NCBI GenBank assembly: GCA_015486845.1
Contig: WFQU01000040.1
Location: forward strand, 1-57,141
DNA length: 57,141 nucleotides
Reading direction: 5' to 3'
From: Anaerolineae bacterium
GTDB lineage: Bacteria; Chloroflexota; Anaerolineae; JAADDB01
Below are positions 14,304 through 30,518 of the stretch, one piece after another. Position numbers and translations under genes: made by a program. Each line of letters opens with the position of its first letter. The first letter of the stretch is position 1. Under the pieces are notes generated by a model, which was not told where the DNA came from, did not search any database, and worked only from the letters and a program-made list of their open reading frames with translations.

Positions 14304-17300
14304 CTACCACTGCGTCGCTAACGGCACAAACGCTTGATACGGTTGGCCGTGATACATATTGGTCTGGGTAACCGCGACTTCCACAGGGCCGTGCATTGCT
14401 CTCTTGCCACCAAACTCTACATCCTCTAACCAGTACCAATACGTTTGGCCTGAAGCAACACCACTATCCGTGAATGTGTAATCGTGCCCGACCACGCTTT
14501 GTCCTTGGCCGGGGATCAATATGTCATTCAGTTTCACAGCCGCGGTAGGATTATTGACCGTTGCACGATAAACATTAAAACCCCAGTTGTCAAACTCAGC
14601 GCTAGTCGTCCAGCGCAGCAGAATATCGCCGTTCACCGGTGCTGCCGTGAAGGCGCTAAGTGTCACCGCCGTGGGTGGCGCAATCGTGTACGTCACGCTA
14701 TCACTGGCCGGATCAGCGGTTTGTCCATCAGCAGATTTGGCGCCGCTCACGGTGGCCGTGTTCACACTATTTTCCACCGCCAGTTCAGCGTGCAAAACAA
14801 TCCGAACCGTGATACTATCGCCGACAGCCAGCGGCGAAGAAGCTAAATTCGTCCACGTCAGCGTGCCGCTACCTGTGCTATCCGGCGCTGGATTGGCCGA
14901 GACGAAAGAAGCTACGCTGCTACCGAACTGGTCGGAAAGCGGCACCATGCTCAAAGACAATTCGCCACTATTGGTAATGATAACAGTAAACGTGAAATTG
15001 TCACCGACTTCGATGGCACCATCAACAGGATCGGTCAATTGTTTACTCACCATCACAGCCGGTTGCGCATAGCCCCAAAAACCGAAATCAGCATGGCCGA
15101 TTTGCCCTGGCTGCGTCAGCGAGACAGGTATTGTTGTCGTCGTTGTTGGCGTGGCGCCAACCGGCAAAGCGGCATCGGCCGGGTCAACTTTCACCACATA
15201 ATCGCCTAACGGCAACCCCACAAACGTATAACTACCGTTGCTATCTGTGACTACACATGAAAGCGCTGTGCCTGGATCAGCAGCTGCATAGAGACAAACC
15301 GTCACGCCAGGAAGCAGTGATTCGCCAGAATCATAAACACCATTCTGGTTCGCGTCGCCGAAAACGACGCCAGTAACGCTGGCCAATGGCTGATAGCCGA
15401 AATCAGCAGCCAAGTTAATACCGTTAGTCGGCAAATCCACCAACAGCGGATTGCTGCCGCCGGTCAACGTGTAGCCGGTCAGTACCTGGTTGGCATCGGT
15501 CACCGTCACGCAATACTTGTCCGGCGTGGCCAAATTCTCGAACAGATAATGCCCGTTGGCATCCGTTGTCGTCGTCATCACCGCGCTGTCATCCGCTGTG
15601 CCACAAAGCGCATCTGCACCGGCTGTGGAGAGCGCAATCGTCACATTGCCGATGCCTGGCTCGCCGGTATCTTGCACGCCGTCGCCGTTCGCATCGTTCC
15701 AAACCGTGTCGCCGATGGCGCCTGGCTGTGGTTGGTAGTAGCCAAAGTCCGCATCCAAATTGACGCCGTTGGCCGGCAAATCCACCAACAGCGGATTGCT
15801 GCCACCGGTCAAGACATATTGATCCAAAACGTGATTAACATCGGTCACAGTCACACAATATTTAGCCGGCGTGGCCAAATTCTCAAACAGATAATGTCCG
15901 TTGGCATTCGTTGTCGTCGTCATCACAGCACTATCGTCCGCCGTGCCGCAAAGCGCGTCCGCACCGGCGGTGGAGAGTGCTAACGTCACATTGCCGATGC
16001 CTGGCTCACCGGGATCCTGCACGCCATTGCCGTTGGCGTCGTTCCACACCGTGTCGCCGATGGCGCCGGGTATGGGCTGGTGATAGCCGAAATCCGCGTC
16101 CAGGTTGACGCCGTTCGCCGGCAAATCCACCAGCAGCGGATTGCTGCCGCCGGTTAACGTGTAGCCGGTCAATACCTGGTTGTCGTCGGTCACCGTCACA
16201 CAGTATTTCTCCGGCGTGGCCAAATTCTCGAACAGATAATGTCCGTTAGCGTCCGTTGTCGTGGTCATCACCGCGCTGTCATCCGCCGTGCCGCAAAGCG
16301 CATCCGCACCGGCTGTGGATAGTGCAATCGTCACATTGCCGATGCCCGGTTCACTGAACTGCTGTGTACCATCGCCATTTGCATCGTTCCACACCGTGTC
16401 GCCGATGGCGCCCGGCGTGGGTTGGTGATAGCCGAAATCCGCATCCAGGTCGATGCCACCCAACAACAAATCCACCAATAACGGGCTGCTTCCGCCCGTC
16501 AAGGTATAGCCGGTAAGCACGCTATTGTCGTCGGTCACGGCCACGCAATACTTTTCCGGCACAGCCAGGTTATCGAACAGGTAATGGCCACTGGCGTTGG
16601 TCGTCGTGGTCATCACAGTCGTGCCGTCGTCAGCCGTGCCACAAACAGCGTCGGCACCGGCCGTGAACAGCGCTAACGTCACATTGCCGATGCCCGGCTC
16701 GCCGGGATCCTGCACGCCGTTGCTGTTCAAATCGTTCCACACCGTGTCACCGATGGCGCCGGGTATAGGTTGGTGATAGCCAAAATCCGCATCCAGGTTG
16801 ACGCCGCCCGCCGGCAAATCTACCAGCAGTGGATTGCTGCCGCCGGTCAGCACGTAAACTGCCAACACGCTGTTGTCATCAGTCACCGTGACACAGTATT
16901 TCTCCGGCGTGGCCAGACTGTCGAAGAAATAGCGGCCATTGGCGGTGGTTGTCGTCGTCATGACCGTTGTGCCGTCGTCCGCCGTGCCGCAAAGCGCATC
17001 CGCGCCGGCGGTGGACAATGCCAAAGTCACATTGCCAATGCCCGGCTCGCCGGGATCCTGCACGCCGTTGCTGTTCAAATCGTTCCACACGGTGTCACCG
17101 ATGGCGCCGGGCGTGGGCTGGTAGTAGCCGAAATCCGCGTCCAAATAAACCGTTTCCACCGGCATGTTCACCAATTGCGGGTTGTTGCCGCCGGTCAGGA
17201 TTTCGTCGGTGAGGACGTGGTTACTGTCCGTGACCATCACGCAGTAGTTGCCGGGAATGGTCATGCTGGAGAAAAGATAATGGCCATTGGCATCCGTCGT

Positions 17301-18902
17301 TTGTGTGCCCACCAGTTGATCATCCGCCGTACCGCAAAGTGCGTCGGCGCCGGCATCGTAAAGGGCCACGGTCACATTGGCAATGCCAGGCTCCGTCGGG
17401 TCTTGCACGCCGTCGCCGTTCAGGTCTTGCCAAACCGTGTCGCCGATCACCGAAGGTTGATAGACATCGGTGAAATCGGTGGCCACGTTATTGGTCGGAT
17501 CATCGCCGGATGTCGGCGTGCTGATCTCGGCCCGGTTAATGATGGTTGTCGTGCCGGGATCGAAGAACGGATCCAGCTTGAAGCTCACCAGGATATTGCC
17601 GTCAGCCCCGGCCGCCAGGTCGCCCAGATCGCAGACCACATTGCCACCGGCTGCAATGCAATTGCCTTGATCAGGCGTAGCATTGAGCAGCGTGCCATGT
17701 GCTGGTAACGTATCGGTAACCGATACATTCGTAGCTAAACCTAACCCTGTGTTGGCATAATGCACCGTATAGGTTAAGACATCACCCGGCGCGGCTAAAT
17801 CCACATGGTCGGTCTTCGTGATGGTCAGTTCCGGAGGCGGCAACTGGCTTTTCACCACGCCCCCGGTCCAGGCCCCGGAATCGCCGGCCGGCCAAGGCAG
17901 CGCATCCGTCGCGGGCGGGGATTCCATTTGGAGAGCCACCCACGTGGCATTAGCGGGCACCGTCAACGTCATGTTCACCGTGGACCATTCAGCACCATCG
18001 TAGCCGCCTGTATAACTAGTCAAAGGCGCTTGCGTCGCGGGGAAACAAGGCGGAGACATATTGAATAAGTTGTGGCCAATCTGAATGCCACCGTTCACAC
18101 CGTGGCTCGCAGGATAAGTTTCCACTAATTTATCCGGTGTAGTGCCGGTGCCGCTGGCTGCCCACAGGTCTAAGGGGCGACAATAACCATAAACAAGCCC
18201 CATGTGACCGGCGCCAGCAAAACTAATGGCCATATTCACATCATGCTCGGCGGGCATCGGAGCAATATCAAAGGTATGCACAGCGGTCAATGGCCCACCA
18301 TCGTAGTTAGAGGCAGCCGCCCACCAGATATAGTCGGCACCGTAATAAGGCTGAATAGACACAGGATGGTGACAAGCCCCGGTGCTATAAATAACCACCA
18401 GTGATGCACCGTTACGCTGTGGATCGCCGTTTGGATTCGCACCGGTCACCGGCAACGGGTACCATTCCCCCACGTGATACGTGTGGGTACCTTCCACTAC
18501 CAGATTAGCGCCATTAGGTCCGACGTCAGCAACCCATTGATACCACGGAGAACGTGAAGAGGAGATCGTCGAATAGTCTGTCCTCTGACCAGTGACGGTT
18601 GTGCCATCGACTTCCAATGTCGTGGTGTTGGGGTTACCAGGGTCATTGGTGTCATTCACACCTTCCCAAATCAACCAGGCGTCCACCACTTGACCTGGCA
18701 CATTCAACGTCACGTTCCCCCAACCATCCCAAAGGGAAACACCACCAATCGCATAATCATAGCATCCTTCCTTGGGGTAATTCGCCATGACAGGGAAAAT
18801 AGCGGAATCAGCCCGGGCAGGAACGGTTCCTTGCGCAACCATGAACAATGACAATAAGAGTAACACCGTAAACAACCAAACTTTCGAGTGACGACTGAAC
18901 AT
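14304..18902 (-). CDS. Large secreted SdrD-B repeat surface protein
   Basis: 1532 aa with a signal peptide (residues 1-31). Residues about 32-350 form a DUF3344-like adhesin head (KEGCYDYAIGGVSLWDGWGN, VSFAGAGHMGLVYGYC region). A DUF11 domain follows near 355-475 (LTITKTDHVDLAAPGDVLTY). Then come seven SdrD-B/Cna-B-type domains of about 115 residues, each beginning GAIGDTVWND.N.(N/D)GVQD and ending LDADFGY; the calcium-binding-like DxNxDGxxD loops are visible. A second DUF11-like domain and a C-terminal FN3-like module (ILLRWTTSAEFDNWGFNVY) complete it. It ends YQAFVPLATQW. Such proteins form long, protease-resistant stalks on the outside of the cell. A good AAGGAGA ribosome site lies seven bases before the ATG. 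Lies 68 bases after the C25 peptidase, likely same transcript. Confidence 0.9.
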   Translation of the reverse strand: MFSRHSKVWLFTVLLLLSLFMVAQGTVPARADSAIFPVMANYPKEGCYDYAIGGVSLWDGWGNVTLNVPGQVVDAWLIWEGVNDTNDPGNPNTTTLEVDGTTVTGQRTDYSTISSSRSPWYQWVADVGPNGANLVVEGTHTYHVGEWYPLPVTGANPNGDPQRNGASLVVIYSTGACHHPVSIQPYYGADYIWWAAASNYDGGPLTAVHTFDIAPMPAEHDVNMAISFAGAGHMGLVYGYCRPLDLWAASGTGTTPDKLVETYPASHGVNGGIQIGHNLFNMSPPCFPATQAPLTSYTGGYDGAEWSTVNMTLTVPANATWVALQMESPPATDALPWPAGDSGAWTGGVVKSQLPPPELTITKTDHVDLAAPGDVLTYTVHYANTGLGLATNVSVTDTLPAHGTLLNATPDQGNCIAAGGNVVCDLGDLAAGADGNILVSFKLDPFFDPGTTTIINRAEISTPTSGDDPTNNVATDFTDVYQPSVIGDTVWQDLNGDGVQDPTEPGIANVTVALYDAGADALCGTADDQLVGTQTTDANGHYLFSSMTIPGNYCVMVTDSNHVLTDEILTGGNNPQLVNMPVETVYLDADFGYYQPTPGAIGDTVWNDLNSNGVQDPGEPGIGNVTLALSTAGADALCGTADDGTTVMTTTTTANGRYFFDSLATPEKYCVTVTDDNSVLAVYVLTGGSNPLLVDLPAGGVNLDADFGYHQPIPGAIGDTVWNDLNSNGVQDPGEPGIGNVTLALFTAGADAVCGTADDGTTVMTTTTNASGHYLFDNLAVPEKYCVAVTDDNSVLTGYTLTGGSSPLLVDLLLGGIDLDADFGYHQPTPGAIGDTVWNDANGDGTQQFSEPGIGNVTIALSTAGADALCGTADDSAVMTTTTDANGHYLFENLATPEKYCVTVTDDNQVLTGYTLTGGSNPLLVDLPANGVNLDADFGYHQPIPGAIGDTVWNDANGNGVQDPGEPGIGNVTLALSTAGADALCGTADDSAVMTTTTNANGHYLFENLATPAKYCVTVTDVNHVLDQYVLTGGSNPLLVDLPANGVNLDADFGYYQPQPGAIGDTVWNDANGDGVQDTGEPGIGNVTIALSTAGADALCGTADDSAVMTTTTDANGHYLFENLATPDKYCVTVTDANQVLTGYTLTGGSNPLLVDLPTNGINLAADFGYQPLASVTGVVFGDANQNGVYDSGESLLPGVTVCLYAAADPGTALSCVVTDSNGSYTFVGLPLGDYVVKVDPADAALPVGATPTTTTTIPVSLTQPGQIGHADFGFWGYAQPAVMVSKQLTDPVDGAIEVGDNFTFTVIITNSGELSLSMVPLSDQFGSSVASFVSANPAPDSTGSGTLTWTNLASSPLAVGDSITVRIVLHAELAVENSVNTATVSGAKSADGQTADPASDSVTYTIAPPTAVTLSAFTAAPVNGDILLRWTTSAEFDNWGFNVYRATVNNPTAAVKLNDILIPGQGQSVVGHDYTFTDSGVASGQTYWYWLEDVEFGGKRAMHGPVEVAVTQTNMYHGQPYQAFVPLATQW
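15387..17454. repeat. Six tandem ~345-bp repeats inside the SdrD-like gene
   Basis: Domain boundaries (the GAIGDTVW codons) fall near 15722, 16067, 16412, 16760, 17108 and 17454, a period of 345-348 bases. The three units nearest the gene's 3' end are almost identical in DNA over long stretches; the most upstream is the most diverged. This is typical of recent duplication or gene conversion and is a likely site of assembly collapse. Confidence 0.92.
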
Positions 18903-18970: not shown

Positions 18971-21799
18971 CTAACGGATATATGCAGGCAAAAAGAACGG
19001 TCGTAAAGCAGACGGTACCGGTAATTCTAACCCTGGATCGCCTATAATTAGATAAGTATCCAAAAGAAATGTATATTGATCCGTTTTAGACAAAAGGTTC
19101 ACCTCCCCTGCCAATGTCAATGGCCCTATTTCCGTTTCACCGCCAAATAGTGCGGCATAGAAACCTTGCTGTAAAAAGCGATGTCCGCTGGCCACTGCCA
19201 ATCCGGAGGAAGACCAACTGCCAATGGTGCCCCCACCGGCATGCGTCAATAACGCTTCATCCAAAGCCGGGTGTTCCGGATGCTGGAAATAGCCGGTAAA
19301 ACAGGTCATAGCCAACAAAAAGGGCAAGCGATGCCCATTGTGCAGTGCCGGAACATCATTCAAGTGAAAAGCATTTTCCTCCATCCACTGCCAGTAAGAA
19401 CTGTGGCCAACATAATCGAAGATGAATCCACCCTCATTCCAGGCCTGATGGACGCGCTGGCGCAGCTCGTCTGCCGAGGCGATATGCCCGGGCAAACCGG
19501 AACTACCTGCCCAAGGATCATAATACAAACGCTGCACCGCTAACGCCGGCGGAATCTGGTGGCCAGCAGAAAGTTCGGCGTGGGCCGAAAAATCGCCAGC
19601 TTCATCCTCATTGCCAGCCGCGTCACGAAAATTATCGGCGATAAAAGTGATGCGGCGCTGCCACGTAGCCGGCGTGCGCGTCGCCTCGTAGCGGATGATC
19701 TTCCCTACCACCATGCGCAACTCGTCCACATTGGCCACCGGCAAGCGCCCGATGAAGAAATCAGGAATGTTGTCATCCCCACTCACTGTCGCCAACCGAT
19801 TATCGCTGGCCGTCTCCCCCAACCAGGGATCCACATTGGCCAAATAAGGTGGTAAAATATTAGACGGATGCCACCCGTAATAGTCACGGAAATCATAGCT
19901 GCCATCTCCCACCAGAAGTACATCGCGCAACAGAGGCGCCTGCCAATGCTGATAAGCCGTTGTCAAAAAGATGCGCAGCGCCTCAGGATCCACCCGGCCA
20001 AAGCTGAACTCGTCGTAAATATCCTGCAAGGCTACCAACTGCACCCGCAAGCCAGCCGCTTCCCGCCATCGCCACAGGGGAAGCAGCGCCGGCCAAAAGC
20101 TCCGCGGCGCAATCATTAGATAATCGGCCTGATTGGAACTAGCCGCCAAATGAGACGGCGTGTCCAGGACAATCTTCGCCGGCCTGTCAAACGCGTTGCA
20201 AGGCCAAAGTTGATAGCGCACCGCCATTGTTCCCTCATCAGCAAAGCGGAACCAACCGTGTGCCGTATCCTGCCCTCCATGCAATAAGAGCTGCGCTGCT
20301 TCAGCATCAGTCACATCCCAAAGGCAAACGGGATCATGGCTGCTGGTACGCACCTGGTAAAGCCGTTGTCCGGCATCGCCGGTCCAGCCTAGCCGGTCAT
20401 CCTGCGCCGACAACTCGCCCCGATATCCCACTTGAAAAGAGGATAGATAAACGCCATCGGGCGGATTACCGCGATCAGCACTGCGTAATGTAAGTTGGTT
20501 GCCAGTGGCACGCAAGAAATTGCTGGCAAAACGAGCACTGTACAAATAATTTGTCTTGCCGCTCCAGGTCGCTACCCCCAAATTGTGGCCGTTCAGCGCT
20601 ATGTGCACCCCGTGCGGCGAATCGGTATAGCCGGTGAAGTGCACGCTTACGTCGCCCTGGTGGGGCCAGGTAACCAAGCCGGGCAGTGCAAACGCAAAAG
20701 TCTGTGTCGGGTAAGGCGGAAACTCCAGCGGGCGCAAATCAATGCTAAACCAATGATCACCATCCGGCCCGGGCAACTGACTGTCGTAGATCTTTTTATG
20801 CACCCAACTGAAATGGTCGCGGCTGGAAGAAGTTACCGTCGTACCGATTGGCGTAACGTCCCGCGTCCCCATGCGCAATCCGGCGGATTGGGCCACGACC
20901 AACCAATATACGTCCGCCGCCTGATAACGGGATGGTTGCGGCGCTGCGTAAAATCGGAAAGCATCGCCGGCGTCCAACCGGCCATCCGCCTGTCCCACGC
21001 CCCAAATGGCCACCTGCCGCTGACCGTGCCAAAGCTGTACCCGGGCCGGGTCGATGGTGGCAATATCCCAGCCGGCCTCTTGTAAATCGTTGGCGGTGAC
21101 TTGGTACACACCGGCGTGATCAATGGTCAAGCGTAGACTGCCAGCCGTCTGCGCCCAGCGATTCACTCGCGGCTGCGGCACCTGACGGGGCCAGGGGCCG
21201 CGAGTTGGTTCAGCAACCAAATCAGCACTGTTAGCCACGTAATGAGAGAGCGTTTGCCCCCAAATGTCCGACGGAGGTGGGCCGGTCACGGTTGGCAACC
21301 GCAAAGTGACATCCACATGCCGGGCGACAATCCAAGCTTGTTGCAAGCCATCCCAATGGGAAGGGTGCACGACAAGCCGGGCCAGCCGATAACCACGCAG
21401 ATAACCGACCTCCCGCACTTCAGCCCACGGTGAGCGAGCCAGAATTCGAGCGGCTGGCCGGTGCTTTACCGACGAGATAACGGGGGCCGGGGCATACAAC
21501 ATGCGCAATGTCCGGCCGTGACTTTCTAATTCGACTTGCCCCCCCGCCGGCAACCAAAAGAGGCGCTGCCAGCCGGGCAAAGTGCGTACTGCATTGTCCG
21601 TTAGCTTTGTTAAAGTGCTGCCCAAGATAGGTGATTGCTGTAATATCTGCCTATCAGCCTGGGTCAAAACGAATTTCCAGTGGTAAACATAGCTGGGGGG
21701 CATGGAAGCCGTTGCAGGAAGGCACACTTGCAAGAGTAGAACCGTGGCTACCAGCACAGACAGCCATCGTGACCCATGTCTCTTTGCCAGATTAAGCAA
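18971..21799 (-). CDS. Secreted C25 (gingipain-like) cysteine peptidase
   Basis: About 942 aa. The frame opens at a GTG (21805), but the GAGG ribosome site leaves only two bases before it; the TTG at 21799, eight bases from GAGG, fits better and is used here. A signal peptide covers about the first 33 residues. The first half is beta-rich, with WQAP-type propeptide and jelly-roll-like sequence. The second half is the C25 catalytic domain: DVLLVGDGSYDFRDYYG, DFFIGRLPV, then the His in FDYVGHSS (about residue 799) and the Cys in LLAMTCFTG (about 833), the catalytic pair. It ends LRPFFLPAYIR. C25 enzymes cleave after Arg or Lys, and relatives such as PorU process exported proteins. Its neighbour is a repeat protein and a PEP-CTERM protein, so processing of surface proteins is a reasonable guess. 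Confidence 0.9.
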   Translation of the reverse strand: MLNLAKRHGSRWLSVLVATVLLLQVCLPATASMPPSYVYHWKFVLTQADRQILQQSPILGSTLTKLTDNAVRTLPGWQRLFWLPAGGQVELESHGRTLRMLYAPAPVISSVKHRPAARILARSPWAEVREVGYLRGYRLARLVVHPSHWDGLQQAWIVARHVDVTLRLPTVTGPPPSDIWGQTLSHYVANSADLVAEPTRGPWPRQVPQPRVNRWAQTAGSLRLTIDHAGVYQVTANDLQEAGWDIATIDPARVQLWHGQRQVAIWGVGQADGRLDAGDAFRFYAAPQPSRYQAADVYWLVVAQSAGLRMGTRDVTPIGTTVTSSSRDHFSWVHKKIYDSQLPGPDGDHWFSIDLRPLEFPPYPTQTFAFALPGLVTWPHQGDVSVHFTGYTDSPHGVHIALNGHNLGVATWSGKTNYLYSARFASNFLRATGNQLTLRSADRGNPPDGVYLSSFQVGYRGELSAQDDRLGWTGDAGQRLYQVRTSSHDPVCLWDVTDAEAAQLLLHGGQDTAHGWFRFADEGTMAVRYQLWPCNAFDRPAKIVLDTPSHLAASSNQADYLMIAPRSFWPALLPLWRWREAAGLRVQLVALQDIYDEFSFGRVDPEALRIFLTTAYQHWQAPLLRDVLLVGDGSYDFRDYYGWHPSNILPPYLANVDPWLGETASDNRLATVSGDDNIPDFFIGRLPVANVDELRMVVGKIIRYEATRTPATWQRRITFIADNFRDAAGNEDEAGDFSAHAELSAGHQIPPALAVQRLYYDPWAGSSGLPGHIASADELRQRVHQAWNEGGFIFDYVGHSSYWQWMEENAFHLNDVPALHNGHRLPFLLAMTCFTGYFQHPEHPALDEALLTHAGGGTIGSWSSSGLAVASGHRFLQQGFYAALFGGETEIGPLTLAGEVNLLSKTDQYTFLLDTYLIIGDPGLELPVPSALRPFFLPAYIR

Positions 21800-21917
21800 A
21801 CACACCCCCTCGGTTCTGTGCTGAGCTACACGTTACTCGCCAATTTTTACTTGAACAATGAAGCTGTGACCGCCACGAATTTTTACGGGTAAGCTTGACA
21901 TTCCGCAAATTTCCTTA

Positions 21918-22008: not shown

Positions 22009-22629
22009 TCACTCAGTTTTGTTGCGAAGCACTTGCACCATATCGTTGGCTGTTGTGAAACAATATGCCGGCATGCCAATGCCGCGAGCCGCTTCTGTGT
22101 TGCGCGTTTTGTCGTCCACCAACAGGCATTGCTCCGGCGGCACGCCGAGCCGCGAGGCGGTCAACCGGAGTATAGCTGGGTCTGGCTTGCGCATGCCGAC
22201 CAACGCGGAAATGACAATGGCATCGAAAGTGGCGTAAAGCGACCAATCCTCCTGCAGGTGGCGCAGGAGGGAAGGCAGAGCATTGCTGCAGAGCGCGACG
22301 GGGTAATGTCGGCTCAAAGCAACAACAATTTGTACCATTTCGGCGTCCAGCGGCTGGCCGTGGAAATTGTCGTCCCGCAGCACACTAAACTCCGCCGGTA
22401 AGCGTTCGGCCCAACGGTCAGCACCAATGGCGTGCCAATAGGCCGGCGGGGTCATGCGCCCGGTGGAGACCGCTTCCCAGGCCGGGCCGCTGAAAAGCGC
22501 GTAGCGGAGCGTTTCCGGCGGCAAACCAAGCTGTCGGTCGTAAGCCAAAAGACGCTCGTTGCGTGCTTCCTCCGACGCCAACACGCCGCCAAAATCGAAA
22601 ATGAAGCCCCGAATCTCGTGATCAGTCAC
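22009..22629 (-). CDS. HAD-superfamily hydrolase
   Basis: 206 aa from a GTG that overlaps the stop of the UbiD-family gene as GTGACTGA; a GTG 17 codons further upstream is possible but would overlap by 59 bases. HAD motifs: FIFDFGGVL near residue 10 (nucleophile Asp; the second Asp is replaced by Gly, as in the YihX/epoxide-hydrolase-like branch), VALCSN near 105, the Lys in GMRKPDPAI near 140 and LLVDDKTRNTEAA near 165. Helical cap after motif I. It should be a phosphatase or dehalogenase on a small substrate; the substrate is not known. Its position as last gene after mevalonate kinase and the decarboxylase makes a role on a prenyl or mevalonate phosphate worth testing, but that is speculative. 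Confidence 0.83.
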   Translation of the reverse strand: MTDHEIRGFIFDFGGVLASEEARNERLLAYDRQLGLPPETLRYALFSGPAWEAVSTGRMTPPAYWHAIGADRWAERLPAEFSVLRDDNFHGQPLDAEMVQIVVALSRHYPVALCSNALPSLLRHLQEDWSLYATFDAIVISALVGMRKPDPAILRLTASRLGVPPEQCLLVDDKTRNTEAARGIGMPAYCFTTANDMVQVLRNKTE

Positions 22630-24019
22630 GGTCTTGGCCTCGCTTGCCGGGATTGTCTTCGAGGTCGGCCGCTGCCACACGCTCTACTTTGTACGATGAT
22701 AGTTCGGCTTTGGGGAAAGAGAGGCGCCGGAACGGCCGCATGGCCGGCGGCTTGTTTCCTTTCCACGGCACGGTAGCGTCTAACGCCATCTTTGCGCCCC
22801 GCGCTTTCTTCCCCGGCACGTGTTGGGCGGAAGGGTCTAATGAACTGGAGGGCCGGTCCGGCCAGACTTGCAAATCACGGTCCGCCTGAAAACGGGTCGC
22901 GATGGCCCATTCCACCATGTCGGCATTAAACAGGTCGACATCATCATCCACCACCACCACGTGCTTCAGCGATGGATGGCCGCGGAACGCCGCTTCCCCC
23001 GCCCGTACTCCCGCGTCGGCATCAGTTTTGTGAATTTGCACCACCGCGTGCAGCCAGGAAGCACCGCCGGGGGTGATGTAAACATGGCGGCAGTCCGCCA
23101 CAGTCGCTACGGCGGCGCAGATGGTGGGCTCTTTGGGCAGGCCCATTAACAGTTGATGCTCCCATCCGCCGGGGAGCAACGCCTGGTAAATAGGCCGCCG
23201 CCGGTGGTAAACGCGGTCGATGACAAGGATCGGTTGTTGGCGCACGACGTCCAGCGTGCCGGTCAAATCGACGAACGGCCCTTCCAGCGCCAAACGCTGC
23301 TGCAACCGGCCTTCCAGGATAATCTCAGCCGCCCACGGCACGGCGACGCCGTTGCGGCAGCGCACCATGGGGGTGGGTGCCAAAGCTTGGGCAAGGCTCA
23401 TTTCGTCCACGCCGGGAGGCGGCCCCATGGACGCGGCCAACAGAATGTGCGGCGGCAAGCCGATGGCGACGGCGACAGGAAGGTCATCCGGCGCGGCATG
23501 CCGCCAGGCGGTGTGCGTGGTGCGCTGTTCCACCAGGCGCGCCACGAAATGGCGCTCATCCAGCTGCAGCAAACGGTGAAAGCTGGCATTAGGGCCGGTT
23601 TGGGGATCAGCGAGGAAGAGCACCCCCGCGGTGACATACGGCCCGGCGTCGTTTTCCCAGTAGGTCAGCACCGGCAAGCGACGCAAATCCACCGTTGGCT
23701 CTGCCACTTCCTGCCAGGGCGCTTCCACGACGAACGGCGGCGACACCGGTGCGGCCAGCGCGTCGACCAAACGGTGCAACAGTTCGTCCGGAGGCATGCC
23801 TATAGCTGATGCCAGATAGCTCCGCCGGGAGACGATGCCGGCCGTCACCCGGTAAGCACTGCCGGCAACCTCTTCCAGCAGAACCGGATGTTCGTCCAGC
23901 GTCGCAATGAGCGCGGCGGCCTCTAGGCGCGCAGAAACCGGCTGTGCCACGCGACGGAGTTCGTTTTGGGCGGCCAACATGTCCAGGAATGTGCGCAAAG
24001 TCGGGATGGGATCAGACAT
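22622..24019 (-). CDS. UbiD-family prenyl-FMN-dependent decarboxylase
   Basis: 465 aa from the ATG at 24019 (MSDPIPTLRTFLDML); the frame continues 17 codons upstream into the kinase gene and that part is rejected. UbiD enzymes decarboxylate unsaturated acids with prenylated FMN made by UbiX. Visible family segments: LRRVAQPVS, YVTAGVLF, AIGLPPHILLAASM, EIILEGRL, GPFVDLTGTLD, LLMGLPKEPTICAAV near residue 310, VYITPGGASWLHAVVQI, and VVVDDDVDLFNADMVEWAIA near 375 followed by TRFQADRDL. The start overlaps the mevalonate kinase stop by eight bases. In archaea a UbiD homologue decarboxylates trans-anhydromevalonate 5-phosphate in a modified mevalonate pathway; the coupling with a mevalonate kinase makes that the leading hypothesis here. 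The alternative is ordinary aromatic-acid decarboxylation. Confidence 0.85.
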   Translation of the reverse strand: MSDPIPTLRTFLDMLAAQNELRRVAQPVSARLEAAALIATLDEHPVLLEEVAGSAYRVTAGIVSRRSYLASAIGMPPDELLHRLVDALAAPVSPPFVVEAPWQEVAEPTVDLRRLPVLTYWENDAGPYVTAGVLFLADPQTGPNASFHRLLQLDERHFVARLVEQRTTHTAWRHAAPDDLPVAVAIGLPPHILLAASMGPPPGVDEMSLAQALAPTPMVRCRNGVAVPWAAEIILEGRLQQRLALEGPFVDLTGTLDVVRQQPILVIDRVYHRRRPIYQALLPGGWEHQLLMGLPKEPTICAAVATVADCRHVYITPGGASWLHAVVQIHKTDADAGVRAGEAAFRGHPSLKHVVVVDDDVDLFNADMVEWAIATRFQADRDLQVWPDRPSSSLDPSAQHVPGKKARGAKMALDATVPWKGNKPPAMRPFRRLSFPKAELSSYKVERVAAADLEDNPGKRGQDRD

Positions 24020-24956
24020 GATCTGTTTCGGCCTCCGTCGGGATGTGTGTGATGATGGTGCGCACGGCACCGGCCCGGCGCATGGCGGCAGCTACCTGCT
24101 CCGCACTTCCCGGCTCGACCAGCGCCAAACAGTTGCCGCCCAAACCGCCGCCGCAGAGCTTGGCGCCCAATGCGCCGGCAGCGCGCGCCGCAGCAAGCAA
24201 GCGTTCCAGCGCCGGGTGCGAGACGCCCATGGCGGCCAATAAAGTCTGGTTGTCGTCCAACAGCCGGCCGACGCCGGTCAAGGTTCCGGTGGTCAGACGG
24301 CGGTAGACCTGGTAAACGATCTCTCCCACTTCGGTAAAGTACTTTTCATACTGACGAGGAGCCTGCTGCCACCGTCGGCGCACGCCGGCCACGGCCTCTT
24401 TCGTCGCGCCGGGCACACCGCTGTCGGCGATGACGAGGGTGAACGGCACGGCGGTGTGGAACGGGCGGGGCGGTGCGCCTTTCTGGAACCAAAGCGGCCG
24501 GCCGTAGGCGATGACATTGTTGTCGATGCCGCTGGGAGTGCCGTGCCACAGTTCCTCGCCCCGATAGACCAATGCTGAAACGTCGGCCGGGAGCAATGTC
24601 ACGCCGAAATAGCGCGCCAAAGCCCGCACCAGCGCCGTCGCCACCGCCGCGCTGCTGCCCATGCCGCTGGCGATGGGTATGGTCGAGCGGATGGTCAGCC
24701 GAACCTGCGGAGGTTCGACGTGGAGCGCTTCCAGCGTCATCCGGGCTACCAGCGCCAAAGGTTGGTTCGCCGGCGCATTTTCCAGCGTGAAGCGCTGGGT
24801 GATATCCGGCAAATCAATTGTGAACCGCTGCCCCGGCGTTTCGCTTATTTTGGCCCGCGCCCGTTCCTGGAAAACCGGCAAAGCAATGGCCGGGCGTCCG
24901 TAGACAACCGCGTGCTCGCCACAAAGGATCACTTTCCCCGACGCAGTAGCAAACAT
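24012..24956 (-). CDS. mvk: Mevalonate kinase (GHMP family)
   Basis: 314 aa. Of the possible starts, ATG 24956 (MFATASGKVILCGEHAVVYG) has a GAAGAGAG ribosome site inside the short leader expected from the -10 box at 24981; ATG 24974 is the alternative. The GHMP motifs are clear: GEHAVVYGRPAIALP near residue 13, the ATP loop IPIASGMGSSAAVATAL near 103, GTPSGIDNNVIAYG near 153 with the catalytic Asp, and the third motif LCGGGLGGNCLAL near 277. The enzyme phosphorylates mevalonate on O-5. Mevalonate kinases are unusual in bacteria but known in Chloroflexota such as Roseiflexus. No phosphomevalonate kinase or diphosphomevalonate decarboxylase lies nearby; a UbiD-family gene does. Confidence 0.92.
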   Translation of the reverse strand: MFATASGKVILCGEHAVVYGRPAIALPVFQERARAKISETPGQRFTIDLPDITQRFTLENAPANQPLALVARMTLEALHVEPPQVRLTIRSTIPIASGMGSSAAVATALVRALARYFGVTLLPADVSALVYRGEELWHGTPSGIDNNVIAYGRPLWFQKGAPPRPFHTAVPFTLVIADSGVPGATKEAVAGVRRRWQQAPRQYEKYFTEVGEIVYQVYRRLTTGTLTGVGRLLDDNQTLLAAMGVSHPALERLLAAARAAGALGAKLCGGGLGGNCLALVEPGSAEQVAAAMRRAGAVRTIITHIPTEAETDHV

Positions 24957-24980
24957 CTTTTCTCTCTTCACCATGCCTTT

Positions 24981-28294: not shown

Positions 28295-29275
28295 TCAGAC
28301 ATCGTACACTTCGGGATTGACACAGAAAGGCAGGCGCTCACCGCACAAGCCGGCCAACAAATTTTCTGCCGCTAAGCGGGCCATTTGGTCACGCGTCGCC
28401 ACCGTCGCGCTGCCAATATGTGGCGTAACGATGATATTATCCAAAGTCAGCAATGGATGGTCGGCCGGTAACGGTTCCGGATTGGTCACGTCCAGCGCTG
28501 CATAAGCGATGACGCTGTCACGCAGCGCCCGGTATAGTGCCATGCTGTCCACAATTTTTCCTCGAGCCGTGTTCACCAAGATGGCCGTACGCTTCATTTT
28601 GTGCAGCGCCGTATCGTCGATGAGCCGTTCCGTTTCTGCCACAAGCGGCGTGTGCACGCTGACGAAATCCGACTGCGCCAAAAGCGTGTCCAAACTCACC
28701 AGTTCGGCGCCCAACCGGTCCGCCTGTGGGTGTGGATGCCGGTTGTGGTACAAAATACGGCAATCGAAACCTGCACAACGCCGGGCCAACGCGTAGCCGA
28801 TGCGGCCCATGCCGATGATGCCAATACTGCTGCCATGCACCGCGGCGCCTAAGAAGCCCAACGGCATCCAGGTGTGCCATTGGGCGGTACGCACAAAGCG
28901 ATCCGCTTCCAGCAAACGCCGTGCCGCGGCCATCAACAAGGCAAAAGCGAGGTCGGCCGTTGCTTCCGTCAACACACCAGGGGTATTACCCACCGGAATG
29001 CTGCGGCGATTGCACGCTGCAATGTCCACATTGTCGTAGCCCACGGCGAAATTGCTTACCACTTTGAGTTGCGGCCCGGCTGCTTCCAGCAGCGCACCAT
29101 CCACCCGGTCTGTCAACAAAGTGAGCAATCCGTCTGCACCCGCCACCCAGGATAGTGCAGTAGCTCGCGGCATGGGCATCTCCTCCGGCCAAACTCGCAC
29201 ATCGGCAGCAGCACGCAGTAATGACAAGCCGGCTTCGGGAATGCGACGCATTACCACAACGTGAGGCTTGCTCAT
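28295..29275 (-). CDS. D-2-hydroxyacid dehydrogenase (glyoxylate/hydroxypyruvate reductase-like)
   Basis: 326 aa, two-domain D-isomer 2-hydroxyacid dehydrogenase. NAD(P)-binding GIIGMGRIGYALARR near residue 152, HNRHPHP at the cofactor-selecting position (Arg after Asn suggests NADP use), catalytic Arg in LVNTARGKIVD near 234, Glu in DVTNPEPLPADHPLL near 266 and His in VTPHIGSATVATR near 282. FAVGYDNVDIAACNRRSIPVGNTPGVLTEATADLA fits the GyaR/GRHPR group, which reduces glyoxylate or hydroxypyruvate. It starts as ATGA on the stop of the second HTH-Hfq-like gene, so translation is coupled to that regulator-like protein. Confidence 0.9.
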   Translation of the reverse strand: MSKPHVVVMRRIPEAGLSLLRAAADVRVWPEEMPMPRATALSWVAGADGLLTLLTDRVDGALLEAAGPQLKVVSNFAVGYDNVDIAACNRRSIPVGNTPGVLTEATADLAFALLMAAARRLLEADRFVRTAQWHTWMPLGFLGAAVHGSSIGIIGMGRIGYALARRCAGFDCRILYHNRHPHPQADRLGAELVSLDTLLAQSDFVSVHTPLVAETERLIDDTALHKMKRTAILVNTARGKIVDSMALYRALRDSVIAYAALDVTNPEPLPADHPLLTLDNIIVTPHIGSATVATRDQMARLAAENLLAGLCGERLPFCVNPEVYDV

Positions 29276-29709
29276 ACAGTCTCCTCCGCTGGCGGCGTAA
29301 AAGGTTCCCCGGCCAGGCTCCAGCGTTCCACAGTATGCCGCTGCACGACTACTTCCGTACCATCTTCTCGAGCAAGCAGAAGGGCTCCCAGATCAAACCA
29401 ACGCACGGTACCGACGAATGTTTCGCCGGAGGCTAATTCGAACTGAGATAGAGCTCCTGTTTCTACCACTTTTCGCAAGAAAAATGTGAGCGCCCGACGC
29501 GACCAGGGTTGACGCCAGGTTACTTCCGCCCAAGGAACACCGTAAAACGCAGCCAGTTTGTGCAATGCATCCTCATCATACATTGGCCGATAGCGTTGCT
29601 CTAATTGTCGCAAAAAAGATCCTGGCACGCCAGTAGCCTCGCTGACCTCTAAGAAAGAGATACCCCCATTTACTGCTCGCAGATAGCGAAAATAGTCATT
29701 ATTGCTCAT
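29272..29709 (-). CDS. Helix-turn-helix protein with C-terminal Hfq/LSm-like domain (short form)
   Basis: 145 aa from ATG 29709 (MSNNDYFRYLRAVNGG), overlapping the end of the partner gene by 11 bases. Residues about 6-60 read as a degenerate XRE-type helix-turn-helix (FLEVSEATGVPGSFLRQLEQ, then YDEDALHKLAAFYGV). Residues 76-131 (TFFLRKVVETGALSQFEL, then VGTVRWFDLGALLLAR and VVVQRHTVERW) follow the Hfq pattern: N-terminal helix, five-strand Sm fold with the G-x-I-x-x-F-D-x-x-x-h-h-L Sm1 signature and a (K/R)-H Sm2 end. Hfq proteins form RNA-binding rings. A single chain with both domains would connect DNA binding and RNA binding; I know of no described function. It is followed immediately by the reductase gene. 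Confidence 0.72.
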   Translation of the reverse strand: MSNNDYFRYLRAVNGGISFLEVSEATGVPGSFLRQLEQRYRPMYDEDALHKLAAFYGVPWAEVTWRQPWSRRALTFFLRKVVETGALSQFELASGETFVGTVRWFDLGALLLAREDGTEVVVQRHTVERWSLAGEPFTPPAEETV

Positions 29710-30421
29710 CGCTTTGCTCCAGCAAGCAACGATAGTATGAAATGGCCAGTTTATTGATGGAAACCTGTTCCCCCGCCTCATTTTCTATCACAATTTGATA
29801 AGGGCCAAAGCCTACCAACAGCCCGCTAAGCGTTGTGCCGTCGAACAGAACAATGCGTAACGACGCTTTCCCATCCTGGCAGGCCTGCAAAAAGTTCAAC
29901 TCGAACTTATCCACGCTTTCGGGCAAATATGGGCGTTGCATGTTTTGTTCATGTTCCTTAGATCGTTGTTGCGCGATTGCCTGCTGAAGGTCGTTCAAGA
30001 GCCGGCTGGCTTCTTTCTGGCTCAAGGTGCTGACAGGTTTACCTAACTGTTCTTGCAATGCTTCGGCGGACCGGTCCAATCGTTTCAATAACCGATCGAT
30101 CTGTTCAATTTGCGTTTCCCGAATAGGTGGCAAAGGTCGTGGTTTCTTGGGCGCCGCCGCTTTCTTGGCAGGGCGGCGTGGTTTGCTATGCCCCCGCGCT
30201 TTCTTTGGGGCAGCTTTCCGTTGCAAAGGTGGATCAGAACGAATCTTGATTTCCCATTCCTCCACGTAAAGTGCTTTAGCCAGCCTCCCTAAATCATTGA
30301 ATGGGATCTCCTGGCTTCCCTGTTCGTAAGAATGAATCATTTGTGCCGACACACCGGAGCGAGCAGCTAACTGGCTAACAGATAAACCTTTCCGCTTGCG
30401 AATTTCCCATAAATTATACAT
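29699..30421 (-). CDS. XRE-type helix-turn-helix protein with C-terminal Hfq-like domain (long form)
   Basis: 240 aa from ATG 30421, chosen because GGGAGAG lies seven bases upstream and a promoter sits 70 bases away. Residues 5-56 are a canonical XRE helix-turn-helix (LSVSQLAARSGVSAQMIHS then YEQGSQEIP). Residues 61-98 are a Lys/Pro/Ala-rich basic linker. Residues 101-160 look like a coiled coil. Residues 173-230 match Hfq: KFELNFLQACQDGKAS, LRIVLFDGTTLSG, LLVGFGPYQIVIEN and INKLAIS line up without gaps with the Hfq helix and Sm1 and with YKHAIS of Sm2. The His of Sm2 is Leu here. A possible DNA- and RNA-binding regulator, head of a run of ten minus-strand genes. A basic DNA-binding protein with a coincidental beta barrel remains possible. 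Confidence 0.78.
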   Translation of the reverse strand: MYNLWEIRKRKGLSVSQLAARSGVSAQMIHSYEQGSQEIPFNDLGRLAKALYVEEWEIKIRSDPPLQRKAAPKKARGHSKPRRPAKKAAAPKKPRPLPPIRETQIEQIDRLLKRLDRSAEALQEQLGKPVSTLSQKEASRLLNDLQQAIAQQRSKEHEQNMQRPYLPESVDKFELNFLQACQDGKASLRIVLFDGTTLSGLLVGFGPYQIVIENEAGEQVSINKLAISYYRCLLEQSDEQ

Positions 30422-30469
30422 CGTTCTCTCCCTTTGAGTGGCAAAAACCAACGAATCAGTGTCTGTCTT

Positions 30470-30483
30470 ACCCTTGAAAGGGT
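30470..30483. promoter_or_regulatory. Operator-like dyad at the start of the HTH-Hfq transcript
   Basis: Perfect 6-2-6 palindrome ACCCTT-GA-AAGGGT, centred five bases downstream of the expected transcript start of the long HTH-Hfq gene. XRE-type regulators often bind such dyads to repress their own gene. Autoregulation is inference. Confidence 0.45.
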
Positions 30484-30488
30484 GTTTC

Positions 30489-30518
30489 ATCATATAACAA
30501 GATATCTCTTTCTGTCAA
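30489..30518 (-). promoter_or_regulatory. Promoter for the HTH-Hfq gene pair
   Basis: Perfect TTGACA (30513-30518), 18-base spacer and TATGAT (30489-30494) on the minus strand. It heads a largely overlapping run of genes and is divergent from the tRNA-Leu promoter 64 bases away. Confidence 0.8.

What the first reader, a model, noticed from the sequence alone, without database searches (positions are those of the whole stretch)
22009..24956. Mevalonate kinase coupled to a UbiD-family decarboxylase: possible bacterial archaeal-type mevalonate branch
Seen: mvk and the UbiD-family gene overlap by 8 bases, and the HAD gene overlaps the latter. Known: in many archaea phosphomevalonate is dehydrated by an aconitase-like enzyme (AcnX) and decarboxylated by a UbiD homologue, then phosphorylated by isopentenyl phosphate kinase; some Chloroflexota use another alternative route. 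Inference: the UbiD homologue may be trans-anhydromevalonate-phosphate decarboxylase. The HAD protein's part is unknown. The route needs AcnX-like subunits and isopentenyl phosphate kinase, not in this window.
Basis: partly seen in the sequence, partly recalled or inferred. Interest (0 to 1): 0.62.

Follow-up and report, generated by a model that had tools for sequence, protein, structure and literature searches.

The report
Archaeal-type mevalonate pathway in a bacterium
This Chloroflexota bacterium carries every gene sought for the archaeal way of making isoprenoid building blocks, and the gene beside its mevalonate kinase is almost certainly the pathway's special decarboxylase; the route was known from one relative, but here it turns up in about half of the sampled genomes of the class.

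Summary
Window 24012-24956(-) encodes mevalonate kinase; 22622-24019(-) encodes a UbiD-fold protein overlapping it by 8 bp. The rest of the archaeal (anhydromevalonate) route lies elsewhere in the same 98%-complete genome: AcnX large subunit, AcnX small subunit overlapping isopentenyl phosphate kinase, HMG-CoA reductase beside archaeal-type HMG-CoA synthase, and UbiX. Phosphomevalonate kinase, (di)phosphomevalonate decarboxylase, IspE and DXR were not found. The UbiD protein forms one family with archaeal homologues that sit in MVK-UbiD-AcnX-IPK operons; the genome's two other UbiDs fall far outside. All 13 large-subunit site positions taken from T. kodakarensis AcnX are conserved. Across 150 genomes of the class, UbiD and AcnX occur together (66; p=3e-31) and largely replace the decarboxylase (p=1e-20); DXR is absent from all. 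The HAD gene is not conserved next to UbiD and is probably incidental. The route is already published for one Chloroflexota bacterium (Ca. Promineifilum breve, Kanno et al. 2024, not readable here), so this is a new member of a known kind. Possibly new: how widespread it is, switching within one family, and two unlike AcnX dehydratases paired with one decarboxylase family. No enzyme activity was measured.

The parts
24012..24956 (-). mevalonate kinase (MVK), 314 aa; ATG at 24956, an in-frame ATG at 24974 is an alternative start
   Evidence: TIGR00549 E 3e-73, over cut-off; closest solved structures are mevalonate kinases; one of only two GHMP kinases found in the genome, the other galactokinase-like
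22622..24019 (-). [quoted passage not shown] overlaps MVK by 8 bp
   Evidence: UbiD N, middle and C domains; groups with archaeal and Chloroflexota homologues linked to AcnX, IPK, MVK and UbiX; 30 family-invariant positions absent from both paralogues, UbiD-type N144/R149 and E246-GPF kept
22009..22680 (-). HAD-IA family hydrolase ORF, overlapping the UbiD gene; function in the pathway not supported
   Evidence: TIGR01509 over cut-off; no motif-matching HAD ORF near AMPD in any other locus; nearest relatives have a ThpR-like gene there

Best explanation
The window holds the mevalonate kinase and anhydromevalonate phosphate decarboxylase steps of a complete archaeal-type mevalonate pathway in a bacterium (Chloroflexota, Anaerolineae-like). 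Inferred route: archaeal-type HMG-CoA synthase and HMG-CoA reductase make mevalonate; MVK (24012-24956) phosphorylates it to mevalonate 5-phosphate; the two-subunit AcnX enzyme (phosphomevalonate dehydratase) removes water through an iron-sulfur cluster to give trans-anhydromevalonate 5-phosphate; the UbiD protein (22622-24019), using prenylated FMN made by UbiX, removes CO2 to give isopentenyl phosphate; isopentenyl phosphate kinase makes isopentenyl diphosphate. Shown here: gene content, orthology, gene order, catalytic-site conservation, co-occurrence and mutual replacement. Inferred: the activities and the prenyl-FMN dependence. The HAD gene is treated as incidental.
For: Gene set in one 97.87%-complete genome: AcnX-L 453 bits, AcnX-S, IPK over the NF040647 cut-off and overlapping AcnX-S by 4 bp, HMGR and archaeal-type HMGS adjacent and over cut-off, UbiX. 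No rival route found: only MVK and a galactokinase-like protein among GHMP kinases, no TIGR01240 match, no DXR in the genome or the class sample. UbiD family: members at 42% identity or more separate cleanly from other UbiDs at 37% or less; archaeal members sit in MVK-UbiD-AcnXL-AcnXS(-IPK) operons and some Chloroflexota in UbiX-UbiD-AcnXL-AcnXS-IPK runs; tree. AcnX-L keeps all 13 cluster and mevalonate-5-phosphate site positions of TkAcnX, unlike the hydroxyproline enzyme. AMPD with AcnX in 66 of 150, Fisher p 3e-31; AMPD against MDD/PMD p 1e-20.
Against: No activity was measured. No biochemically characterised AMPD sequence was available for the tree, so orthology rests on archaeal loci identified by operon context. 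The genes lie on four contigs besides the window's own, so the genome has no single operon; binning error is possible, though contamination is estimated at 0.92% and relatives show the same set. Ten of 150 genomes seem to carry both AMPD and a TIGR01240 decarboxylase, and nine have AMPD or AcnX without the other, so the pattern is not absolute. Isopentenyl diphosphate isomerase was not searched for.
Confidence: 0.94

Rival explanations
1. The UbiD protein is an ordinary aromatic-acid, furan or menaquinone-pathway decarboxylase that happens to lie next to MVK.
For: It has a generic UbiD fold, and its best match among solved structures is 6h6x/6h6v (227 bits), a UbiD-type decarboxylase of a different function.
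Against: The same genome has a separate menaquinone-type UbiD over the TIGR03701 cut-off (C129) and a third UbiD (C76) that matches 6h6x better, 288 bits. The window protein is only 26-30% identical to those two and is linked to MVK, AcnX and IPK across bacteria and archaea.
Confidence: 0.03
2. Isoprenoids are made by a classical, haloarchaeal-type or Thermoplasma-type mevalonate branch, or by the DXP route, and the UbiD/AcnX genes do something else.
For: About half of the class sample, including three members of the window's own family, carry a TIGR01240 decarboxylase instead.
Against: The window's genome has no TIGR01240 match, no GHMP kinase besides MVK and a galactokinase-like protein and no DXR. 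AcnX and IPK are present. Mevalonate-3-kinase and MVA3,5BP decarboxylase were not searched directly, but would be expected among GHMP or TIGR01240 relatives.
Confidence: 0.02
3. The HAD protein is a functional part of the branch, for example a phosphatase acting on isopentenyl phosphate or related intermediates, translationally coupled to the UbiD gene.
For: Its ORF overlaps the UbiD gene in the window; a 27%-identity HAD match lies between UbiD and AcnX-L in one archaeal locus, L093.
Against: No other locus, including the 72-73% identical nearest relatives, has a motif-matching HAD ORF near AMPD. No step of the route needs a phosphatase (established pathway knowledge).
Confidence: 0.06

Closest known systems
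Archaeal (anhydromevalonate) mevalonate pathway, Aeropyrum pernix (Hayakawa et al. 2018, cited in PMC11052028)
   Same: MVK, two-subunit AcnX type II, UbiD-family decarboxylase, UbiX and IPK all present; MVK-UbiD gene order as in archaeal operons
   Different: Bacterial host; genes spread over five contigs, with only MVK-UbiD, AcnXS-IPK and HMGR-HMGS adjacent
Archaeal mevalonate pathway in Ca. Promineifilum breve, Chloroflexota (Kanno et al. 2024, doi 10.1128/aem.01106-24; title from PMC13001223, paper not held)
   Same: Same phylum and same pathway; Promineifilum sp. UbiD proteins are 50-54% identical to the window's and belong to the same family
   Different: The Promineifilum sp. loci seen here carry an AcnX large subunit of another lineage (mean 33% to the archaeal type), while the window's genome has the archaeal-like one, 45% to T. 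kodakarensis. Whether Ca. P. breve itself has that type was not checked
Haloarchaea-type mevalonate pathway of other Chloroflexota (Dellas et al. 2013, cited in PMC13001223; PMC11052028)
   Same: Shares MVK and, by published accounts, isopentenyl phosphate as intermediate and IPK
   Different: Uses a GHMP-family phosphomevalonate decarboxylase, for which this genome has no match; TIGR01240 cannot by itself tell that enzyme from the classical one
UbiD-type menaquinone decarboxylase (TIGR03701) and 6h6x-type UbiD
   Same: Same UbiD fold and core residues
   Different: Below the TIGR03701 cut-off (149 against 496 bits); 30 positions invariant in AMPD differ in the genome's own two paralogues

Membership tests
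Archaeal (anhydromevalonate) mevalonate pathway | Phosphomevalonate dehydratase: AcnX type II large and small subunits | tested here: met
   AcnX-L on C106, AcnX-S on C140; best solved matches 7cnr chains A and B
Archaeal (anhydromevalonate) mevalonate pathway | Cluster cysteines and mevalonate-5-phosphate-site residues of TkAcnX | tested here: met
   All 13 large-subunit positions identical; AtAcnX hydroxyproline enzyme differs at five. Small-subunit S and V also kept in the alignment, allowing a one-residue numbering offset
Archaeal (anhydromevalonate) mevalonate pathway | Anhydromevalonate phosphate decarboxylase (UbiD family) orthologous to the archaeal one | tested here: met
   Same family by tree, identity gap and operon linkage; no biochemically characterised AMPD sequence was in the tree
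Archaeal (anhydromevalonate) mevalonate pathway | UbiX prenyltransferase for the prenyl-FMN cofactor | tested here: met
   One PF02441 protein, UbiX-like by reading, on C114; UbiX adjacent to AMPD in relatives L048, L073, L093 and L104
Archaeal (anhydromevalonate) mevalonate pathway | Isopentenyl phosphate kinase | tested here: met
   NF040647 166.7 bits, cut-off 120
Archaeal (anhydromevalonate) mevalonate pathway | No phosphomevalonate kinase or (di)phosphomevalonate decarboxylase | tested here: met
   limited by 97.87% completeness
Archaeal (anhydromevalonate) mevalonate pathway | Enzyme activities on mevalonate 5-phosphate and anhydromevalonate phosphate | not testable with these tools
   Needs biochemistry
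Menaquinone-type UbiD decarboxylase (TIGR03701) | Score over the curated cut-off | tested here: not met
   149 against 495.9 bits; the C129 paralogue scores 618
Classical or haloarchaea-type mevalonate branch | GHMP-family (di)phosphomevalonate decarboxylase | tested here: not met
   No TIGR01240 match in the genome
DXP (MEP) pathway | DXP reductoisomerase and IspE | tested here: not met
   No PF02670 match in the genome or in 150 class genomes; no IspE among GHMP kinases
Any mevalonate pathway ending in IPP and DMAPP | IPP isomerase | not tested

The most novel reading that the evidence does not exclude
The archaeal mevalonate route is a mainstream bacterial pathway in this Chloroflexota class, exchanged repeatedly for the decarboxylase route even within one family, and it exists in two assemblies: one AMPD family paired either with an archaeal-like AcnX (as in the window's genome) or with an AcnX as distant from the archaeal type as the hydroxyproline enzyme is (Promineifilum loci), meaning that the dehydratase was replaced while the decarboxylase was kept.
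Probability: 0.6. Interest if true: 0.55.

Novelty: new member of a known kind. Interest (0 to 1): 0.42.

Why it matters
The anhydromevalonate route was described as unique to archaea (PMC10040528) and then shown in one Chloroflexota bacterium. Here the UbiD/AcnX pair appears in about 44% of 150 sampled genomes of one bacterial class, mostly in place of the decarboxylase, and no DXP reductoisomerase was found in any of them. That makes the class a natural test bed for how one essential pathway replaces another, and offers many bacterial enzymes for comparing the two AcnX lineages.

Tried and rejected
First hmmscan calls failed on a wrong MVK start. Kanno et al. 2024 is not held and further paper searches gave no survey of the route across Chloroflexota. 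Considered and rejected: menaquinone or aromatic decarboxylase (the other two UbiDs fit these better), HAD as a pathway enzyme (not conserved), AcnX as hydroxyproline dehydratase (45% identity to TkAcnX against 36% to AtAcnX, site residues differ; NF051439 far below cut-off, 303.6 against 700). No structure was predicted because fold membership was not in doubt.

Full report
Observation. MVK spans 24012-24956(-), the UbiD-family gene 22622-24019(-), overlap exactly 8 bp; the HAD ORF spans 22009-22680(-). Families are confirmed by NCBIfam and Pfam: TIGR00549 over its cut-off for MVK, TIGR00148 and the three UbiD domains for the second, HAD-IA for the third.

The rest of the pathway. The window is contig C40 of a 3.28-Mb genome in 182 contigs, 97.87% complete, 0.92% contaminated. 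Elsewhere in it are the AcnX large subunit (C106, 453 bits), the AcnX small subunit (C140) whose ORF overlaps the IPK gene by 4 bp (NF040647 over cut-off), HMG-CoA reductase next to an archaeal-type HMG-CoA synthase (C101; TIGR00748 547 bits) and a UbiX-like protein beside a gene that reads like a menaquinone-type methyltransferase (C114). Note that TIGR00532, the HMGR model passed, is named 'degradative', after the NAD-type class. The only GHMP kinases found are MVK and a protein read as galactokinase, so phosphomevalonate kinase and IspE were not seen; TIGR01240 (diphosphomevalonate decarboxylase, which also rings for Haloferax volcanii) has no match; DXR has none.

Which UbiD is the decarboxylase? 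The genome has three. C129 is over the cut-off of the menaquinone decarboxylase model (617.6 against 495.9 bits). C76 lies beside ABC-transporter permease and ATPase genes (by reading) and is closer to structure 6h6x than the window's protein is (288 against 227 bits). The window's protein is 26% and 30% identical to them. In 150 genomes of the class, matches fall into two sets: 42-73% identity, and 37% or less apart from short fragments. Neighbourhoods of the close set show MVK directly upstream in many loci, UbiD-AcnXL(-AcnXS) in L038, L040, L045 and L049, and UbiX-UbiD-AcnXL-AcnXS in L048.

Link to archaea. A scan of named genomes with the family alignment brought Chloroflexota and archaeal loci: Bathyarchaeota, Thermoplasmata, Methanomicrobia, Diapherotrites, Undinarchaeales, at 45-51% identity. 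In Bathyarchaeota the order is MVK-UbiD-AcnXL-AcnXS-(IPK); Thermoplasmata and Methanomicrobia share MVK-UbiD-AcnXL-AcnXS where the contig is long enough; Undinarchaeales and one Diapherotrites locus have UbiX directly before UbiD. In the tree (quick method, SH-aLRT only) the family is separated from both paralogues by a starred branch, archaeal rows group in two clades, and the window's protein sits with L021/L050 (99*) inside a Chloroflexota clade (95*) that also contains the Promineifilum sequences. Two Chloroflexota rows (L049, L075) are not placed firmly. The paralogues are very long branches, so the root is unsure. Thirty positions are at least 97% invariant in 110 family members and differ in both paralogues, while core UbiD positions such as N144, R149 and E246-G-P-F are shared. 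That N144/R149/E246/D251 correspond to the known UbiD active-site residues is from general knowledge of the family and was not mapped onto a structure here.

Dehydratase site. Watanabe et al. 2021 (PMC8184944) list the cluster and mevalonate-5-phosphate contacts of T. kodakarensis AcnX; a study of the A. pernix enzyme (PMC10040528) showed three conserved cysteines needed for a [4Fe-4S] cluster. The window genome's AcnX-L has the same residue at all 13 large-subunit positions checked (A47, G48, V49, S50, N53, N79, C110, E129, S131, C283, C342, K361, Y365), whereas the hydroxyproline enzyme differs at 47, 49, 50, 53 and 131. Identity is 45% to TkAcnX and 36% to AtAcnX. The authors note that purified TkAcnX itself showed no activity; the A. 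pernix enzyme did.

Distribution. In the same 150 genomes: AMPD 71, AcnX 70, TIGR01240 decarboxylase 79, DXR 0. AMPD and AcnX together in 66, Fisher p 3e-31; AMPD and decarboxylase together in only 10, p 1e-20. These tests treat genomes as independent, which they are not, so the p-values overstate the case; the sample was drawn evenly across many families, which limits but does not remove this. The AMPD set was chosen by identity of 42% or more, fragments included. In the window's own family, G000 and G125 have AMPD and AcnX and no decarboxylase, G016, G081 and G105 the reverse, and G052 none of the three.

Two dehydratases. Promineifilum sp. and allied loci carry an AcnX large subunit only 33% identical on average to the archaeal type and to the other Chloroflexota (the hydroxyproline enzyme is equally far from the archaeal type), although their AMPD is 52-57% identical to the same groups; in the AcnX tree they stand on a branch of 4.95 (with a long-branch warning). 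They keep the three cysteines but have S47, T53 and N131. The simplest reading is that this lineage uses another AcnX subclass; fast evolution of the same gene is not excluded. Function of that AcnX rests on its position beside AMPD and, from memory of its abstract, on Kanno et al. 2024.

HAD gene. Its ORF overlaps the UbiD gene in the window, but the nearest relatives (72-73% identity) have a ThpR-like gene there, and a motif scan found no HAD ORF near AMPD elsewhere. One archaeal locus, L093, gave a 27% tblastn match to HAD in that place, which fails the motif and was not followed up.

Novelty. The pathway is known in archaea (Hayakawa et al. 2018) and was reported in a Chloroflexota bacterium (Kanno et al. 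2024, title read in the reference list of PMC13001223; paper not held). This is therefore a new member of a known kind. The wide occurrence in the class, the within-family switch and the two AcnX lineages were not found in the papers that could be read, but that is not proof that they are unreported. No activity was measured; the function is inferred from orthology, context and site conservation.

Noticed in passing
window 29272-29781(-) and 29699-30493(-): Two neighbouring genes each join a helix-turn-helix domain to an Hfq-like (Sm-like) region (PF17209/PF21979 weak, below cut-off): possible DNA-binding and RNA-binding fusion regulators.
   Followed up: no
G001, G002, G013, G021, G040, G063, G072, G091, G129, G143 (class sample): Ten genomes carry both the AMPD-type UbiD and a TIGR01240 decarboxylase, including three from one genus code (g5), so both routes may coexist there.
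   Followed up: partly
L076, L084, L086, L091, L095, L097, L113, L123, L126: Promineifilum-type loci have an AcnX large subunit of a different lineage from the archaeal-like one, next to or near an ordinary AMPD.
   Followed up: partly
G003, G041, G073, G099, G119, G138 (family f4) and G068, G115, G134 (family f36): TIGR01240 matches of only about 105-121 bits, below cut-off, suggesting a different decarboxylase type, while other f36 genomes have AMPD.
   Followed up: no
L021, L023, L024, L025, L030, L033, L035, L037, L039, L043, L047, L050, L051, L053 and others: A ThpR-like (RNA 2',3'-cyclic phosphodiesterase-like) gene follows AMPD in many Chloroflexota, with no evident link to isoprenoids.
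   Followed up: no
window 18971-21805(-) and 14304-18902(-): A C25-family peptidase next to a 1532-aa protein with seven SdrD-B-like repeats: secretion or surface-protein pair by look.
   Followed up: no
L093 2064-2618: A 27%-identity tblastn match to the window HAD lies between UbiD and AcnX-L in a Diapherotrites-labelled locus.
   Followed up: partly
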